Source: Nocardioides pocheonensis
GTDB taxonomy: Bacteria > Actinomycetota > Actinomycetes > Propionibacteriales > Nocardioidaceae
Direction: 5' to 3'
NCBI RefSeq assembly: GCF_003725535.1
Contig: NZ_RJSF01000003.1
Coordinates: 264,336-324,889 of the forward strand
Length of the DNA: 60,554 bases
Under the pieces are notes generated by a model, which was given only the letters and a program-made list of their open reading frames with translations, did not search any database and was not told the DNA's origin. Both the position numbers and the translations under genes were made by a program. Position 1 is the first letter of the stretch, and each line of letters starts with the position of its first letter. Below, one piece after another: positions 25,665 to 32,216 of the stretch.

Positions 25665-26324
25665 TCAGGTCTGCTCGTCGGTCCGGGGGTAGCCCCGGAT
25701 GCCCCGCCAGGCGAGGCCCGCGATCAGGCCGGCCGCCATGTCCTGCTCGATCGTGTCGCGGCCCTGGACCCTGTCCTGGAGCCAGAACCGGGCGCTGACC
25801 TCGCCCATTCCCACCAGCGCCACCGCGAGCAGTCGGCACTGGTCGTCGGGGAGCCCGGTGTCGTCGTGGATGACGTGCGCGATCAGCTCGGCGCACTCGG
25901 TGGTCACGCGGTCGATCCGCTGGCGCACGGCCGGGTCGTTGGTGAGGTCGGACTCGAAGACGAGCCGGAACTCGCCCTCCTCGCTGGCGACGTAGGTGTA
26001 GAAGGCGTGCATCGTCGCGGCGACCCGCTGCTTGTTGTCGTCGGTCGACTCCAGCGCGGCACGGGTGCCGTCGATGACGGCGTCGACGGCCCGGTCGAGC
26101 AGGGCCAGGTACAGCTCGAGCTTGCCCGGGAAGTGCTGGTAGAGGACCGGCTTGGAGACGCCGGCGCGGTCGGCGATGTCGTCCATGGCGGCGGCGTGGT
26201 AGCCCTGCGCGACGAACACCTCGAGCGCCGACTCGAGCAGCTGTGCGCGGCGGGCGCGACGGGGAAGCCTGCTGCCGCGCGGCGTGCGCTCGCCGGGGTT
26301 GGGACGGGTCGCGGGACTGCTCAC
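25665..26324 (-). CDS. TetR/AcrR family transcriptional regulator
   Basis: A 219-residue regulator from GTG 26324. The N-terminal helix-turn-helix is MDDIADRAGVSKPVLYQHFPGKLELY (about residues 48-73), preceded by a basic arm (RLPRRARRAQLL). The C-terminal ligand domain contains FRLVFESDLTNDPAVRQRI and GLAWRGIRGYPRTDEQ, which match the conserved orthologue beside DUF3107 in other actinobacteria (Rv3208 position). The ligand is unknown. The 267-base gap to the divergent surface-protein gene could hold its operator. Confidence 0.92.
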   Translation of the reverse strand: MSSPATRPNPGERTPRGSRLPRRARRAQLLESALEVFVAQGYHAAAMDDIADRAGVSKPVLYQHFPGKLELYLALLDRAVDAVIDGTRAALESTDDNKQRVAATMHAFYTYVASEEGEFRLVFESDLTNDPAVRQRIDRVTTECAELIAHVIHDDTGLPDDQCRLLAVALVGMGEVSARFWLQDRVQGRDTIEQDMAAGLIAGLAWRGIRGYPRTDEQT

Positions 26325-26591
26325 GCGGCGGGCCCCCTCGGGTCTCGGTGGTCGTGGACGACGGTCGGCGATGGTCGCAGGCGAGCCTACTCTGCGGCCG
26401 CTGCCGGGGGAGGCCCGCCACGGCCGCGCGTCCCTCGCGACTGCGGATGTGGTCGAAACCACAGCAAAGCAACAAAGCGGACTATACCGCCCGAATTGTT
26501 CCCTTGAATATCGAGGCCGCCCGGGACTGGAATGGATTCGAGGACCGGGCAAATCGGCCCGTTTCGGACAAAAGAATCGGGGGCAGTAATC

Positions 26592-27662
26592 ATGAGGAGC
26601 GTGAGCGGAGCCCGGAAGAATGCGGCCCGCCGCTTTGCCACTGTCATGGCTGCCGCAGGTGCGCTGCTCGTCTCGAGCGGCCTGGCCCTGATGGCAGCCC
26701 CTTCGCCGGCCGCGGCCGGCGACACCCGGGCGGCGGAGAGCACGTGCACGCCGTCGGAGGCCTACACCGAGACCAGCGACTGGGTCCTGACGTCGCCGGG
26801 CACGGATTGGTACGAGGTCGACCAGCGCCAGGTCCTCGTGACGCCGGCCGTCGACCCGACGTACGGTCCCGGCCAGCGGTACTCGTGGAACCCCCAGGGC
26901 CCGTACGACGAGTCCGTGGTCCCGCCCGCCTGGCCGACACCGGCGCAGGGCAGGTGGACGCCGAACACCGCGGCGTACAACCCCGGCCACGTCGGCGAGC
27001 CGGTCGGAGTGGTGTTCCAGCAGGGGCACGGCAACGGTGGTGACAACGCGTCGTGGTTCTACTGGGAGCGGGTGCAGGTCACCCCGGGCTCGGACGCGGT
27101 GTATCGCACCGAGTACAAGTTCGCCCTCGACCACCCGGCGGTCACCTGCCCCGTCGAGGCGTACGCCGACGTGCAGTGGATCGAGCCCAGCTGCGGCACG
27201 AAGGCGGACTTCAAGACCAAGAGCGGCGACCCCGTCGACGTGACCTGGTCCGCCCCGTCGGCCACGCCGGCACCGGGTGTCACGGTGACGCTCGTCGCGA
27301 CCGCGATGGACGGCTACACCTTCGGCGGCTCCGCCACCCAGGCGTTCACCCACACGTACGCCGCGGTGGTGCCGCCCGCAGGGCAGACCTACGACCCCGT
27401 GACGGGTGTCTGCGCGGCGCCCGTGCCGCCGGTCGTCGAGCCGCCCACGACGCCGCAGGTGAGCCCGCCCAAGACGCCCGTGAAGGCGCACGTCAAGGCT
27501 CAGACCAAGACCCCGACCGTCGTCCACGCGGGTCTGGTCACGACCGCGAGTGACACCGGCGCCCAGGCGGGCCTGGGCCTGGTCCTGGCCGGCCTGGTGC
27601 TGCTGGCCGGTGCGGGCAGCCTGGTCCTCGCCGGAGGAGGCGAGCCGAAGGACGCTGCCTGA
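26592..27662 (+). CDS. Secreted, C-terminally anchored surface protein
   Basis: A 356-residue protein from ATG 26592 with a signal peptide (basic start, hydrophobic 16-36, cleavage near APSPAAAGDT). The mature part contains FQQGHGNGGDNASWFYW and a Cys-containing C-terminal half with Pro-rich linkers. The last 50 residues begin TPTVVHAGL, followed after 11 residues by a hydrophobic helix and a short polar tail: a sorting-signal layout without LPXTG. It is paralogous to the next gene and lies two genes before a sortase, suggesting a sortase substrate (inference). Function unknown. The region just upstream is poorer in GC than the neighbouring genes. Confidence 0.82.
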   Translation: MRSVSGARKNAARRFATVMAAAGALLVSSGLALMAAPSPAAAGDTRAAESTCTPSEAYTETSDWVLTSPGTDWYEVDQRQVLVTPAVDPTYGPGQRYSWNPQGPYDESVVPPAWPTPAQGRWTPNTAAYNPGHVGEPVGVVFQQGHGNGGDNASWFYWERVQVTPGSDAVYRTEYKFALDHPAVTCPVEAYADVQWIEPSCGTKADFKTKSGDPVDVTWSAPSATPAPGVTVTLVATAMDGYTFGGSATQAFTHTYAAVVPPAGQTYDPVTGVCAAPVPPVVEPPTTPQVSPPKTPVKAHVKAQTKTPTVVHAGLVTTASDTGAQAGLGLVLAGLVLLAGAGSLVLAGGGEPKDAA

Positions 27663-27971: not shown

Positions 27972-28703
27972 ATGGGGAACACACATGCAAAGGGGCGGTT
28001 CTCCGCCCGCCGCGCAGCGACCTTCCTGGGGGTGCTCGGTGCGCTGGTGATGTCCAGCGGCATCGCGCTGATGGTTGCCGCAACTCCGGCCAACGCTGCT
28101 GACTGCACGCCCGCCGCGGCGTTCACCGAGACGATCAACCACCCGGCCGTGACCCACGTGGTCCACCACGACGCCGTCGACGCCGTGCCGAGCATGTGGT
28201 GGAACTGGTCTCCCAACAAGGACCAGGGTCCGTTCGACGGGCCGCCGGACTTCCCCACGGACTCGCGCGGCACGTGGGAAGGCCCGCACACCAATGGCGG
28301 GCCCGGCCAGGACGAGGTCGGCACCTTCCAGCAGGGTGAGGGCAACGGCAGCTGGTTCCACCGCTCTGCAGCGGTCGAGGGTCAGGACGCGTTCGACGAG
28401 ACCGTGACCGACACCGCCGCCTGGACCGAGACCATCAACCACCCGGCCGTGACCTGCAACGCCGTCTCGACGCCTCAGGTCGAGGGGACCACCGTGGTCA
28501 GCCCGCCGAAGGCGCACGTCAAGGCCAAGGCCAAGGTCCACGCCCAGGCGGTCACGCCGACCGTGGTGCACGCCGGCCTGGCCAGCACGATCAAGGACAT
28601 GCGCGGCGAGCAGGGCCTGGCCCTGATGGTCGCCGGCATGATCATGCTGGTGGCTGCGGGCGGTCTCGGACTCCGCGTCCGGGGCGCCGCCGCGCGGATC
28701 TGA
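27972..28703 (+). CDS. Second secreted, C-terminally anchored surface protein
   Basis: A 243-residue paralogue of the 26592-27662 product. It has a signal peptide (hydrophobic 17-37, cleavage after TPANA-A), a mature start with DCTPAAAFTE, and QQGEGNGSWFH matching the first protein. The phrase TETINHPAVT occurs twice (residues 52-61 and 152-161), showing internal duplication. The last 49 residues again start TPTVVHAGL and carry a membrane helix, aligned almost gap-free with the first protein, and end RVRGAAARI. Preceded by the Lys-rich linker AHVKAKAKVHAQ. Probable substrate of the adjacent sortase (inference). Confidence 0.8.
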   Translation: MGNTHAKGRFSARRAATFLGVLGALVMSSGIALMVAATPANAADCTPAAAFTETINHPAVTHVVHHDAVDAVPSMWWNWSPNKDQGPFDGPPDFPTDSRGTWEGPHTNGGPGQDEVGTFQQGEGNGSWFHRSAAVEGQDAFDETVTDTAAWTETINHPAVTCNAVSTPQVEGTTVVSPPKAHVKAKAKVHAQAVTPTVVHAGLASTIKDMRGEQGLALMVAGMIMLVAAGGLGLRVRGAAARI

Positions 28704-28746: not shown

Positions 28747-28787
28747 ACCGAGGGCGACGACCGGTAGGACCGGTCGTCGCCCTCGGT
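28747..28787 (+). terminator. Strong intrinsic terminator after second surface-protein gene
   Basis: An 18-bp perfect stem (28747-28764 with 28770-28787, ACCGAGGGCGACGACCGG on the left) closes a 5-base loop and is followed by GTTTGCG. It separates the surface-protein genes from the sortase gene, so the sortase probably has its own promoter or depends on read-through. Confidence 0.85.
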
Positions 28788-28835
28788 GTTTGCGTCGCGG
28801 GCCGGACCCGAGTGACAGATTCCCGAGGAGGCGCG

Positions 28836-30887
28836 GTGGACGAGCACGGTCCGCCCGACCCGTCGGAGCAGCCGCTGGTTGCGGCCGCCCCGGCCGACGG
28901 CCGCGATCCTGACGACGCGGTCGCGTTCCTCCGTACGGTCCGGGAGCTCGTGCACGGCGAGCAGGTGCCCACGCCCCGAAGCGGGTCCGACGCGTGGGAA
29001 GCGCCGACGGGCAGCGAACCGACGACCGGATGGCTGCCCGGACGGTGGGAGGTCGAACCGGCGCCCGCGGCGCCCGGGCGGCGGCGCCGCAGAGTGCCAC
29101 CGGACGACGAGCAGCAACCGAGCGGGAAGTCGGCGAAGACCCGTCGTCGCGCACGCAGCCGCCGTACCGTGGAGACGGCGGCGCAGAGGGGCGCGCCGGG
29201 GGCGGAGGTGCCGATGAAGGCGAGTGGGCGCGAGCCTGGCCCCACTCCGGTTGCGCCCGACCCGGCACCCGACGACCGCGACCCCGGGTCCCGCGACCGT
29301 CCGGCCGAGGTGACCGCGCCGGCTCCCGGGTCCGAGGAGCTCGTCGGCGACGGCCCACGGGCGCGGACGAAGACCCTCCGGGCAGAGGAGAAGGCGCGCG
29401 CGGCGCGGGAGCGCCAGGAGGCACGCGAGCGGGCCCTGGTGGATCGTGCGGCGGCCCTGGTCGCGAAGGCCGAGGCGAAGGCCGAGAGGGACCGCAGGAA
29501 GGCCGGACGCGGGCAGGCGGAGGCCACCGCCGCTGACCTGGCGGGAACGAGCGAGCCCACGGAGCAGGTCGCCCCGACCCGGCCGACCAGGGCCGAGCGC
29601 AAGGCGGAGCGCGAGGCCGCGCGGGAGCGGGCCTGGCTCGAGCGGGCTGCCGCGGAGGCGGTGGCAGCCGAGGCCCGAGCCGAGCGTGAGGCCGGGGAGA
29701 GCAGGGCCAGGGCGGAGCGCGAGGCGGCGGAGGCCGCGCGTGCGCGGGACCGCGCGGAGCGCGAGGCCGAGGAGGAGCACGCACGGGTCGCACGCATCGC
29801 CGAGGAGGTCGCGGAGACGATCGCGCGCCTCGAGGCGGAGGCGAAGGCCCAGTCCGACGGCATGAGCGCGAAGGCGCAGGCAAGGATCGCGCGCGTCACC
29901 GGGAAGGCGGAGGCGCGGGTCGCGCGAGCCGCGCGCCGATCCGAGGCCGCCACCGAGCGGGCTTCGGCCAAGACGGAGCGACGTCTGCGGCGTCGGGCTG
30001 CGAAGGCCCAGCAGCGTGCCGACCGCGCCGCCGCGGGGGCCAGGGCGAAGTCGGAGGTTGCCGCACAGCACGCCCGCCGGGCCGCCGAGCTCGAGGCGCG
30101 GGCGATCGCGGTCGACCCGGCCGGCACCGACGAGGGACGTGTCGAGCGGCTGGCCGACTACATCGCGCGGGTCGAGGCGCAGCGGTCCTCGCAGGACCGC
30201 GGACCACGATTCGGCCGGCGCGCCCGGGCGGCGACCGTCGGCGCGGTGATCGTGGTCGCCGCGCTCGTGCCGTGGGTGGCCCCGCAGGTGCCTGACGCGA
30301 TCTCCGGGATCCTCCCGGGCCACGCCGGGAAGCCGGTCCGCGTGGCCGACCCGCCCGTCGCGCCGCCGACCACGGCGTTCGTGGGCCCGGTCGGCGTCCA
30401 GGACCAGGCCGGCCCGTACGACGGCGTACGCCTCCAGGCGGCCGGCTGGCCGCGTGAGGTCCAGGTGGACCGGCTGCACGTGGACTCCACGGTCCTTCCG
30501 ATCAGCGGTCAGAGCGGGTCGCTGCTGCCTCCGTCCGACCCGCAGGTGCTGGGCTGGTGGAAGGAGGGGCGACCTGCCGGTGCGGAGTACGGCTCGGCCG
30601 TCATCACCGGGCACACCGTGCACACCGGCGGCGGTGCCCTCGATCACCTCGACAAGCTCGTCGTCGGCGACTCCGTGCGGGTGCGCACGGACGCCGGCTG
30701 GATCCGCTACGAGGTGCAACGGACCCGGGTCTACTCCACCGAGCAGCTGGCCCGCGACGCCAAGCAGATCTTCACCCTGGGCGGCCCGGGACGGCTCGTG
30801 CTGATCACCTGCGACAACTGGAACGGGTCGTTCTACGAGTCCAACGCGGTGGTGTTCGCGGCGCCCGTCGCCGACGAGCCGAGCTGA
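28836..30887 (+). CDS. Sortase with long cytoplasmic coiled-coil N-terminus
   Basis: A 683-residue protein from GTG 28836, which has GAGGAGG at ideal distance. Residues 1-165 are polar and Pro-rich; about 170-450 are an Ala/Arg/Glu-rich coiled coil (repeats such as AEREAAEAARARDRAEREAE); one membrane helix spans about 465-487. The C-terminal domain is a sortase with catalytic His593 in ITGHTVH and Cys659 in LVLITCDNW, closest to the class F type of actinobacteria. Sortases cut a C-terminal signal and join the protein to the wall. The topology puts the coiled coil in the cytoplasm, which is unusual: class F enzymes are normally near 200 residues. Confidence 0.88.
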   Translation: MDEHGPPDPSEQPLVAAAPADGRDPDDAVAFLRTVRELVHGEQVPTPRSGSDAWEAPTGSEPTTGWLPGRWEVEPAPAAPGRRRRRVPPDDEQQPSGKSAKTRRRARSRRTVETAAQRGAPGAEVPMKASGREPGPTPVAPDPAPDDRDPGSRDRPAEVTAPAPGSEELVGDGPRARTKTLRAEEKARAARERQEARERALVDRAAALVAKAEAKAERDRRKAGRGQAEATAADLAGTSEPTEQVAPTRPTRAERKAEREAARERAWLERAAAEAVAAEARAEREAGESRARAEREAAEAARARDRAEREAEEEHARVARIAEEVAETIARLEAEAKAQSDGMSAKAQARIARVTGKAEARVARAARRSEAATERASAKTERRLRRRAAKAQQRADRAAAGARAKSEVAAQHARRAAELEARAIAVDPAGTDEGRVERLADYIARVEAQRSSQDRGPRFGRRARAATVGAVIVVAALVPWVAPQVPDAISGILPGHAGKPVRVADPPVAPPTTAFVGPVGVQDQAGPYDGVRLQAAGWPREVQVDRLHVDSTVLPISGQSGSLLPPSDPQVLGWWKEGRPAGAEYGSAVITGHTVHTGGGALDHLDKLVVGDSVRVRTDAGWIRYEVQRTRVYSTEQLARDAKQIFTLGGPGRLVLITCDNWNGSFYESNAVVFAAPVADEPS

Positions 30888-31016
30888 CGGGATCGCGAGA
30901 CGGAGTTCCCAGATGCCGGGACCGCGGTCGGCGACCGAGGTGGCTCGGGGAACATGGACGGACCGCGCGGTGTTCTCACCGCCGAAGAAGTTCGATCGCT
31001 GACACCGAGGAGCGTC

Positions 31017-32216
31017 GTGTCCCTGCCCGCACTGGTCGAGCCGGCCGCTGAGCTGACCGTCGACGAAGTCCGCCGCTACAGCCGGCACCTGATCATCCCC
31101 GACGTCGGGATGTCGGGGCAGAAGCGGCTCAAGAACGCGAAGGTGCTCGTGATCGGCGCCGGTGGTCTCGGCAGCCCGGCGCTGCTGTACCTCGCCGCAG
31201 CCGGCGTCGGCACGCTCGGCATCGCCGAGTTCGACGAGGTCGACGAGTCGAACCTGCAGCGCCAGGTCATCCACGGCCAGAGCGACGTCGGCCGCCCGAA
31301 GGCGGAGTCGGCCAAGGACTCGATCGCCGAGATCAACCCGCTGGTGAACGTCGTCGTGCACGACGTGCGCCTCGACAACGACAACGTCATGGAGATCTTC
31401 CGTGGCTACGACCTGATCGTCGACGGCACCGACAACTTCGCCACGCGCTACATGGTCAACGACGCGGCGTACTTCCTCGGCATCCCCTACGTCTGGGGCT
31501 CGATCTACCGCTTCGACGGCCAGGCCAGCGTGTTCGCGCCGACGCTCGTCGACGACGCTCCGTGCTACCGCTGCCTCTACCCCGAGCCGCCGCCGCCGGG
31601 CATGGTGCCCAGCTGCGCCGAGGGCGGTGTCCTCGGCGTGCTCTGCGCGAGCATCGGCTCGATCCAGGTCAACGAGGCGATCAAGCTGCTCACCGGCATC
31701 GGCGACCCGCTGGTCGGCAAGCTGATGATCTACGACGCCCTCGAGATGGAGTACCGCAAGCTCAAGGTGCGCAAGGACCCGAACTGCGCGCTCTGCGGCG
31801 AGCACCCCACCGTCACCGAGCTGATCGACTACGAGACCTTCTGCGGTGCGATCAGCGACGAGGCGGCCGACGCGGCCGCCGACGCCACGATCTCGGTGGT
31901 CCAGCTCGAGCACATGCTCAAGGAGCGCGAGGAGGGCACCCGTGACTTCGTGCTCGTCGACGTGCGCGAGCCCAACGAGTACGAGATCAACCGCATCCCC
32001 GGCTCGGTGCTGATCCCCAAGGGCGACTTCCTCAACGGCTCCGCCCTCGAGAAGCTGCCCAGCGACAAGCAGATCGTCATGCACTGCAAGACCGGCGTGC
32101 GGTCCGCGGAGACCCTGGCGATCGTGAAGGGCGCGGGCTACTCCGACGCCGTCCACGTCGGTGGTGGCGTGGTCGCGTGGGTCAACCAGATCGACCCGTC
32201 GCAGCCGTCGTACTGA
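31017..32216 (+). CDS. moeZ: MoeZ: adenylyltransferase/sulfurtransferase
   Basis: A 399-residue fusion of a ThiF/MoeB adenylylating domain (VLVIGAGGLGSPALLYLA at 43-60; DESNLQRQVIHG; DGTDNFATRY) and a C-terminal rhodanese domain with active-site Cys357 in HCKTGVRSAE. Two CxxC pairs (CYRC and CALC) likely bind zinc. It activates the C-terminus of ubiquitin-like sulfur carriers and loads sulfur for molybdopterin, cysteine or thiouridine synthesis. It matches M. tuberculosis MoeZ (Rv3206c) along its length. GTG 31017 with GAGGAGC before it is preferred to upstream codons. Confidence 0.95.
   Translation: MSLPALVEPAAELTVDEVRRYSRHLIIPDVGMSGQKRLKNAKVLVIGAGGLGSPALLYLAAAGVGTLGIAEFDEVDESNLQRQVIHGQSDVGRPKAESAKDSIAEINPLVNVVVHDVRLDNDNVMEIFRGYDLIVDGTDNFATRYMVNDAAYFLGIPYVWGSIYRFDGQASVFAPTLVDDAPCYRCLYPEPPPPGMVPSCAEGGVLGVLCASIGSIQVNEAIKLLTGIGDPLVGKLMIYDALEMEYRKLKVRKDPNCALCGEHPTVTELIDYETFCGAISDEAADAAADATISVVQLEHMLKEREEGTRDFVLVDVREPNEYEINRIPGSVLIPKGDFLNGSALEKLPSDKQIVMHCKTGVRSAETLAIVKGAGYSDAVHVGGGVVAWVNQIDPSQPSY

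What the first reader, a model, noticed from the sequence alone, without database searches (positions are those of the whole stretch)
28836..30887. Sortase fused to about 280 residues of cytoplasmic coiled coil
Class F sortases are small. This one has a polar head, a long Ala/Arg/Glu coiled coil and only then the membrane helix and catalytic domain (His593, Cys659). A cytoplasmic scaffold of this kind could place the sortase at a septum or pole, or gather secretion partners. I know of no described sortase with this architecture.
Basis: partly seen in the sequence, partly recalled or inferred. Interest (0 to 1): 0.7.

Follow-up and report, generated by a model that had tools for sequence, protein, structure and literature searches.

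The report
Sortase with long cytoplasmic helix tail
A bacterial enzyme that staples proteins to the cell wall carries, in this soil bacterium's lineage, a long and fast-changing tail inside the cell, and the proteins it probably staples are encoded just before it and carry an unusual attachment tag.

Summary
28836-30887 (+) encodes a 683-residue sortase: N-terminal region of about 460 residues, one membrane helix, then a sortase domain (His593, Cys659). Close relatives start at the same place and many conserve head motifs, so a start near residue 455 is excluded. "Coiled coil" needs refining. AlphaFold gives two long helices (60 and 173 residues), but heptad periodicity is absent; the helix is an alanine-rich 11-residue (hendecad) repeat, the kind described for actinobacterial FilP/Scy. 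The helix is not the conserved part: on the tree it needs about five gains or losses, while short motifs around it persist. The nine orthologs found in 24 genomes of the genus all have a tail (about 76-940 residues); three sister loci have 12-24. The two genes upstream encode related secreted proteins ending in PTVVHAG and a membrane helix, which I read as a sorting signal. Neighbours of class-F-like sortases carry such tags in 60 of 69 cases (6 of 65 elsewhere), in two types that follow sortase subtype. Most likely: a dedicated sortase-substrate system whose tail tethers or clusters the enzyme inside the cell; tail function is inferred. Cytoplasmic extensions are published for class E sortases, so this is a new variant of a known kind.

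The parts
28836..30887 (+). sortase gene, 683 aa from GTG (alternative in-frame GTG at 28812)
28926..28961 (+). head motif FLRTVRELVHGE
   Evidence: FLxxVR-LV pattern in 31 of 43 tails, shuffle maximum 1
29031..29048 (+). WLPGRW motif
   Evidence: [WF]LPG in 19 of 43 tails, shuffle maximum 1
29190..29207 (+). GAPGAE motif after a basic stretch
   Evidence: 11 of 43 tails, shuffle maximum 2
29355..29534 (+). predicted helix 1 (residues 182-241)
   Evidence: AlphaFold2
29595..30113 (+). predicted helix 2 (residues 262-434), Ala/Arg/Glu hendecad repeat
30150..30179 (+). juxtamembrane motif LADYIARVEA
   Evidence: [YWFH][LIV][AGV]RV[EQPA][AS] in 26 of 43 tails, shuffle maximum 1
30213..30278 (+). 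membrane helix (residues 468-489), preceded by Arg cluster
   Evidence: cytoplasmic N-terminus inferred from the charges
30462..30869 (+). sortase catalytic domain (PF04203)
30612..30614 (+). catalytic His593
   Evidence: invariant in the 41 rows of A3
30810..30812 (+). catalytic Cys659
   Evidence: invariant in the 41 rows of A3
27972..28703 (+). probable substrate 2: secreted protein with WWNWSPN region and C-terminal anchor
28557..28579 (+). PTVVHAGL sorting-signal candidate of substrate 2
26532..27662 (+). probable substrate 1: paralogue of substrate 2 (likely start ATG 26592)
27513..27535 (+). PTVVHAGL sorting-signal candidate of substrate 1
28747..28787 (+). perfect 19-bp inverted repeat between substrate 2 and the sortase, possible terminator
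   Evidence: not among the terminator-like sites

Best explanation
This is an active class-F-like sortase that covalently anchors the two secreted proteins encoded just upstream, recognising P-T-V-V-H-A-G before their C-terminal membrane helix (cleavage presumably between A and G). Its lineage has added a long cytoplasmic tail. Short motifs shared by many tails (FLxxVRxLVHGE, WLPGxW, the juxtamembrane Y-x-ARVE) dock the enzyme to one or more cytoplasmic or membrane partners. The alanine-rich hendecad helix is an extendable rod, probably self-associating, that spaces or clusters these docking sites. Shown by computation: gene, start, domain, helix periodicity, motif conservation, gene pairing and the tag-subtype agreement. 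Inferred: activity, cleavage at the tag, partner docking, oligomerisation.
For: Sortase domain, catalytic His/Cys and fold. Tail in each of the 9 orthologs found in 24 genus genomes, 12-24 residues in three sister loci. Motifs far above shuffles. Helix 2 aligns without gaps in P0003 and P0004 at 152 and 127 of 173 identical. Tail dN/dS 0.21 against 0.08 for the catalytic domain in one pair. Hendecad periodicity. Tag: 17 hits in 24 genomes, none for the reversed pattern, 15 of 17 within 5 kb upstream on the strand of a class-F-like sortase. One of two tag patterns in 60 of 69 neighbouring secreted proteins against 6 of 65 comparable frames elsewhere in the same loci. Homologous surface proteins carry LPxTG or LAxTG before the membrane helix.
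Against: No experiment or structure of the tail. AlphaFold was run on a monomer, so oligomerisation is untested. The hendecad helix is absent from most relatives, and the dN/dS pair lacks it. 49 of 118 loci had no neighbouring candidate substrate. The tag patterns were written after seeing these sequences, so the agreement describes rather than tests. One homolog, P0068, has PTVVHAGI followed a few residues on by LPNTGG, so there PTVVHAG may be only a linker. The inverted repeat before the sortase suggests separate transcription here. The class A catalytic Arg position holds Asn, as in most class-F-like relatives. Confidence lowered from 0.6 to 0.55 for P0068.
Confidence: 0.55

Rival explanations
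1. One reading: the helix is a FilP-like coiled-coil rod that puts the sortase at the growing pole or septum.
For: Alanine-rich hendecads are the repeat type described for FilP/Scy (PMC9858780, passages seen); the host is an actinobacterium by its relatives.
Against: No DivIVA-like domain found by Pfam at E up to 1. Orthologs without the helix exist, some with Pro/Glu tails. No localisation data.
Confidence: 0.25
2. The tail is mostly non-adaptive low-complexity expansion in GC-rich DNA, tolerated because it dangles in the cytoplasm.
For: Length and composition differ widely among orthologs; the long-helix label needs 5 changes on the tree (3 forced by well-supported branches).
Against: dN/dS 0.21 in the tail of one pair; motifs in up to 31 of 43 against a shuffle maximum of 1; coherent 11-residue phase. 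Only short, weak DNA tandem repeats in the window.
Confidence: 0.2
3. The helix is an amphipathic 11-mer helix lying along the inner membrane surface, stabilising or clustering the enzyme, not a coiled coil.
For: 11-residue periodicity, and Arg, bulky hydrophobic and acidic residues on different faces of the window's helix.
Against: Only 17 of 177 residues are bulky hydrophobics, and basic residues flank one side only.
Confidence: 0.12
4. Start-site artefact: the real gene starts near residue 455.
For: None found; GC-rich open frames on both strands invite over-extension.
Against: Relatives conserve the head and motifs at protein level and start alike.
Confidence: 0.02

Closest known systems
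Class F sortases (NCBIfam NF033748; C. acnes SrtF; C. diphtheriae SrtF 5uus)
   Different: 57.9 bits against a cut-off of 166; C. acnes SrtF works on an LPQTG peptide (PMC7451113 passage), here the neighbours carry PTVVHAG; the class-F-like loci outside the clade that have a neighbouring candidate leave room for only a short tail
Class E SrtE1 of Streptomyces coelicolor with cytoplasmic extension (PMC5148588)
   Same: Cytoplasmic N-terminal extension, variable in sequence, with a conserved stretch before the membrane helix; deletion of residues 15-79 behaves like a null (the authors could not exclude loss of stability)
   Different: 100-200 residues with an acidic and a basic patch, class E domain, LAxTG; no hendecad helix described in the section read
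A. missouriensis SrtE, 792 aa (PMC13251363)
   Same: Sortase with more than 500 residues before the catalytic domain; the same paper notes class F neighbours that look like substrates but lack the usual pentapeptide
   Different: Class E; nature of the N-terminal region not described in the parts seen
FilP and Scy (PMC9858780)
   Same: Actinobacterial alanine-rich hendecad helices
   Different: Cytoskeletal proteins with a DivIVA-like N-terminal part; described without any sortase in the passages seen
AbpA and its SrtB in oral streptococci (PMC4974636)
   Same: Dedicated sortase beside a substrate with an unusual C-terminal signal
   Different: Class B; LPKTS signal without membrane helix; relevant to the anchorless homologs noted in passing

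Membership tests
Sortase superfamily | PF04203 domain over its gathering score with catalytic His and Cys | tested here: met
Sortase superfamily | Arg at the S. aureus SrtA Arg197 position | tested here: not met
   By eye Asn in the window; 51 of 58 genus loci show Asn there by pattern; exceptions include three with YQR and the class E sortase of this genome with DNR. A trait of the class-F-like group rather than of this gene
Class F sortase (NF033748) | Score over the curated cut-off | tested here: not met
   57.9 bits against 166, although it is the best class model
Class F sortase (NF033748) | LPxTG-type substrate | not testable with these tools
   Neighbouring proteins carry PTVVHAG; no biochemistry
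Class E sortase with cytoplasmic extension | Class E catalytic domain (NF033747) | tested here: not met
   21.5 bits against 160
Heptad coiled coil | Hydrophobic a/d enrichment at 7-residue period | tested here: not met
   Mean z 0.8, 2 of 15 above 2; window p 0.42-0.93 for four segments
Hendecad coiled coil | Hydrophobic a/d/h enrichment at 11-residue period in a helix | tested here: met
   Mean z 4.0, 13 of 15 above 2, window z 4.2; with bulky residues alone mean z 2.4, 7 of 15 above 2
Hendecad coiled coil | Helices associate with each other | not testable with these tools
   Only monomer prediction available
FilP/Scy (DivIVA-like superfamily) | DivIVA-like N-terminal domain | tested here: not met
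   Pfam lists only PF04203 for the sortase protein at E up to 1

The most novel reading that the evidence does not exclude
Actinobacterial class-F-like sortases use two hitherto unrecognised sorting codes, P-x-G-[GHSA]-[VPAM]-x-T-G for typical class F and P-[T]-x-[V]-x-[AS]-G for the divergent subtype. In the Marmoricola/Nocardioides lineage the latter enzyme has been fused to cytoplasmic tails, including FilP-like hendecad rods, that couple surface-protein anchoring to an intracellular scaffold.
Probability: 0.3. Interest if true: 0.8.

Novelty: new variant of a known kind. Interest (0 to 1): 0.6.

Why it matters
The role of class F sortases is called unknown in a 2026 study, which deleted all four of one species without phenotype and set aside two neighbouring genes for lack of a pentapeptide, while noting that they may encode substrates (PMC13251363). 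The tags found here give concrete peptides and substrates to test. The tails offer a natural series, from about 76 to 940 residues on one conserved enzyme, for asking what a sortase's cytoplasmic part does, a question left open by the SrtE1 deletion result (PMC5148588).

Full report
1. The gene. Two close relatives, P0003 (MDETGPPDPSEQPLVA...) and P0004 (VDEAGSTDPLEQ...), begin at the point of the 28836 start, and GAGGAGG precedes it. Pfam finds only a sortase domain at 551-686 (691 numbering; 63.3 bits, cut-off 26.6). NCBIfam's best class model is class F, but at 57.9 bits against a cut-off of 166; class E gives 21.5. Another sortase of this genome (L070) and a Kribbella one (L014) are likewise far below the cut-off (83 and 78.5 bits), while a third sortase of this genome (L106) passes it (185 bits). 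The genome has four sortases. Contigs of the relatives N. marmorisolisilvae and Marmoricola sp. have the same lengths as contigs of genomes in the window's genus, so the host is taken to be of that group.

3. The tail. AlphaFold2 on the whole protein (26 rows, mean pLDDT 62.6, pTM 0.30) gives helices 34-48, 182-241, 262-434, 447-459 and the membrane helix 468-489; most of the rest of the tail is below 50. Its periodicity is not heptad. In the window alone, hydrophobicity shows a significant 100-degree period (p 0.0005 for 258-352, 0.009 for 353-437; not for 185-232, p 0.42), and heptad a/d enrichment is not above shuffles in any of four segments. Across 15 sequences with a proline-free run of at least 100 residues the summed spectrum peaks at 99.5 degrees with 89.3, against a maximum of 38.3 in 300 shuffles; 12 of 15 peak at 99-100 degrees, P0018 and P0032 at 119 and P0035 at 94. 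Identity autocorrelation over ten of them is on average highest at lags 11, 22 and 33 (mean z 5.5, 3.8 and 2.8; P0037 z 13.4 at lag 11), though P0024 peaks at 22 and P0040 at 29. Writing the sequence in rows of 11 shows the repeat. A register test gives hendecad a/d/h mean z 4.0 (13 of 15 above 2; window 4.2), heptad 0.8 (2 of 15), pentadecad 1.5, and control periods 9, 10, 12 and 13 give 1.6, -0.7, -0.6 and 0.0; with bulky hydrophobics alone hendecad is 2.4 (7 of 15) and heptad 0.5. Hendecads with alanine cores are described for FilP and Scy (PMC9858780, passages seen). Whether these helices pair here is not known.

4. What is conserved in the tail. A search with residues 440-691 gave 46 relatives of 426-818 residues (length-filtered, so biased to long ones). 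Of 47 sequences including the query, 43 could be anchored and 4 were dropped (P0017, P0029, P0033, P0039). FLxxVR-LV is in 31 of 43, [WF]LPG in 19, GAPGxE in 11, and the juxtamembrane [YWFH][LIV][AGV]RV in 26; shuffled tails reach at most 1, 1, 2 and 1. A long proline-free run (at least 100) is in 15 of these 43. On a tree of 45 sequences 16 carry it, and the label needs 5 changes (bootstrap 4-5; 3 forced by well-supported branches). So the helix is a changeable module between recurring short motifs. Close relatives keep it: helix 2 aligns without gaps to P0003 (152 of 173 identical), P0004 (127) and P0020 (80), where the catalytic part has 137, 138 and 127 of 146.

5. Tails in a set not filtered by length. 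Of 24 genomes of the genus, 23 have an NF033748 match. I fetched 58 loci, not every match. A tree of 71 catalytic domains groups the window's sortase with L087, L091-L096, L099 and the protein relatives (94/100 support): eight further genomes, nine of 24 with this one. Estimated tails from first plausible start to membrane helix are 575 (L087), 339 (L091), 145 (L092), 276 (L093), 76 (L094), 257 (L095), 940 (L096) and 318 (L099) residues; the three sister loci L074, L079 and L090 have 24, 16 and 12. Sequences are unlike: Pro/Glu-rich with five LAALFG-like motifs in L096, W-x-W-x-P motifs in L087, L092 and L099. L091 and L096 still show an FLRDV motif. Measured without a start call, the distance from the substrate stop to the membrane helix is 242-2803 nt in the 8 clade loci and at most 167 nt (median 51) in the other 61 loci that have a neighbouring candidate; the window has 1510 nt. 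In the one close pair with DNA (L093/L095, whose tails lack the helix) the tail has dN/dS 0.21 (0.18 for codons 45-276; 0.77 for the first 45, where dS is small) against 0.08 for the catalytic part.

6. The neighbours. Upstream lie two paralogous secreted proteins (26592-27662 and 27972-28703; 38% identity over 186 columns, 51% over 75 near the C-terminus), both with PTVVHAGL, a spacer and a hydrophobic stretch at the end. The same arrangement is in L005 (two genes), L006, L007, L008, L009 and L010. The DNA pattern for P-T-[VL]-V-[HQDE]-[AST]-G-[LF] occurs 17 times in 11 of the 24 genomes, and its reverse never. Compared with the sortase places, 15 of 17 lie within 5 kb upstream, same strand, of a class-F-like sortase. 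Of the others one is about 6.7 kb away (G006:C1:19002), and one is on a contig without a sortase match (G013:C141:203). In this genome all three hits are beside sortases.

7. Is it a sorting signal? The second protein has 229 homologs, 120 listed. Of the 120, 83 have P[TS][VL]V[HES]AG[LIM] 44-49 residues from the end. Among the 37 without, seven have LPxTG or LAxTG before a membrane helix (P0084, P0087, P0094, P0098, P0102, P0106, P0152). So homologous surface proteins carry a canonical tag where these carry PTVV[HE]AG. Against this, P0068 has both, PTVVHAGI and a few residues on LPNTGG, so the motif may be a linker there. Across 118 fetched loci (58 from the genus, one of them class E, and 60 chosen by hand for variety from the class-wide list, fetched) 69 have a same-strand secreted, tail-anchored neighbour just upstream and 49 have none by my criteria. 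Two patterns, P-x-x-[VI]-x-[TAS]-G and P-x-[GN]-[GSHA]-[VAMP]-x-T-G, cover 60 of the 69 neighbours (38 and 22) and 6 of 65 comparable frames elsewhere in the same loci (5 and 1). Sorted by NCBI's cut-off: of 22 neighbours of sortases over it, 20 have the second pattern and 2 neither; of 47 below it, 38 have the first, 2 the second and 7 neither. With a cut at 140 bits Fisher's test gives 1.6e-15. The patterns were written after seeing these rows and many loci are related, so this is a description to be tested on new genomes.

8. Mechanism. Shown by computation: sortase domain and membrane helix, tail with recurring motifs and hendecad helix, gene pairing, tag agreement. Inferred: the enzyme cleaves the tag and anchors the two upstream proteins; its tail, cytoplasmic by the positive charges before the membrane helix, docks partners through its motifs, with the helix as rod or dimeriser. 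The perfect 19-bp inverted repeat at 28747-28787 (not flagged by the simple terminator scan) suggests that the sortase has its own transcription here, unlike L091, L093, L095, L096 and L099, whose likely starts overlap the substrate stop by 17-20 nt.

9. Against the literature. PMC5148588 (passages and one section read): SrtE1's cytoplasmic extension, 100-200 residues in homologues, is needed in vivo; deleting 15-79 acts as a null, with loss of stability not excluded. PMC13251363 (two sections and passages read): SrtE has 792 residues with the class E domain at 575-775; deletion of four class F sortases gave no phenotype; two neighbours of class F genes have signal peptide, membrane region and basic tail but no recognised pentapeptide and may be substrates. 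PMC7451113 (passages): C. acnes SrtF works on an LPQTG peptide. PMC4974636 (passages): an anchorless C-terminal sorting signal. I found no paper describing a class-F-like sortase with such a tail, nor these tags, in the searches. Verdict: a real and unusual variant of a known enzyme; the substrate tags may be the more useful part.

Noticed in passing
P0072, P0075, P0074, P0090 and 12 more homologs of window 27972-28703: Sixteen of 120 listed homologs end exactly at ...[VI]-x-[AS]-G-L (such as VPTVIDAGL) and three at ...LPNTGA, without any membrane anchor; AbpA's anchorless LPKTSAVK signal (PMC4974636, passages) is a precedent.
   Followed up: partly
L171 2300-3487 (Microbacterium phage Ixel gene 42); L173 3932-5065 (IMG/VR contig): Phage-borne homologs of the window's surface proteins with host-type sorting signals: LAETG in Ixel, PTVVDAG on the viral contig. 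A phage may put a protein on the host wall.
   Followed up: partly
window 27972-28703 and homologs: A region of about 70 residues with WWNWSPN...GTWxGPH...GGP...SWFHRE recurs in the homologs aligned and has no Pfam or NCBIfam match over cut-off.
   Followed up: partly
L092, L087, L099 tails: Cytoplasmic tails repeat W-x-W-x-P motifs that resemble the WWNWSPN motif of the surface proteins; probably coincidence.
   Followed up: no
L091, L093, L095, L096, L099 (start of tail): These orthologs begin with a short hydrophobic stretch flanked by arginines (such as LRNVALSLLVVGVT) right after the substrate stop; not seen in the window.
   Followed up: no
58 genus loci: Class-F-like sortases mostly have Asn where class A has the catalytic Arg197 (51 of 58 by pattern); the class E enzyme keeps Arg.
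   Followed up: partly
window 25665-26420 (-) and 30954-32216 (+): The locus is flanked by a FasR-like TetR regulator (below cut-off) and MoeZ; by sight L005 keeps both neighbours.
   Followed up: partly
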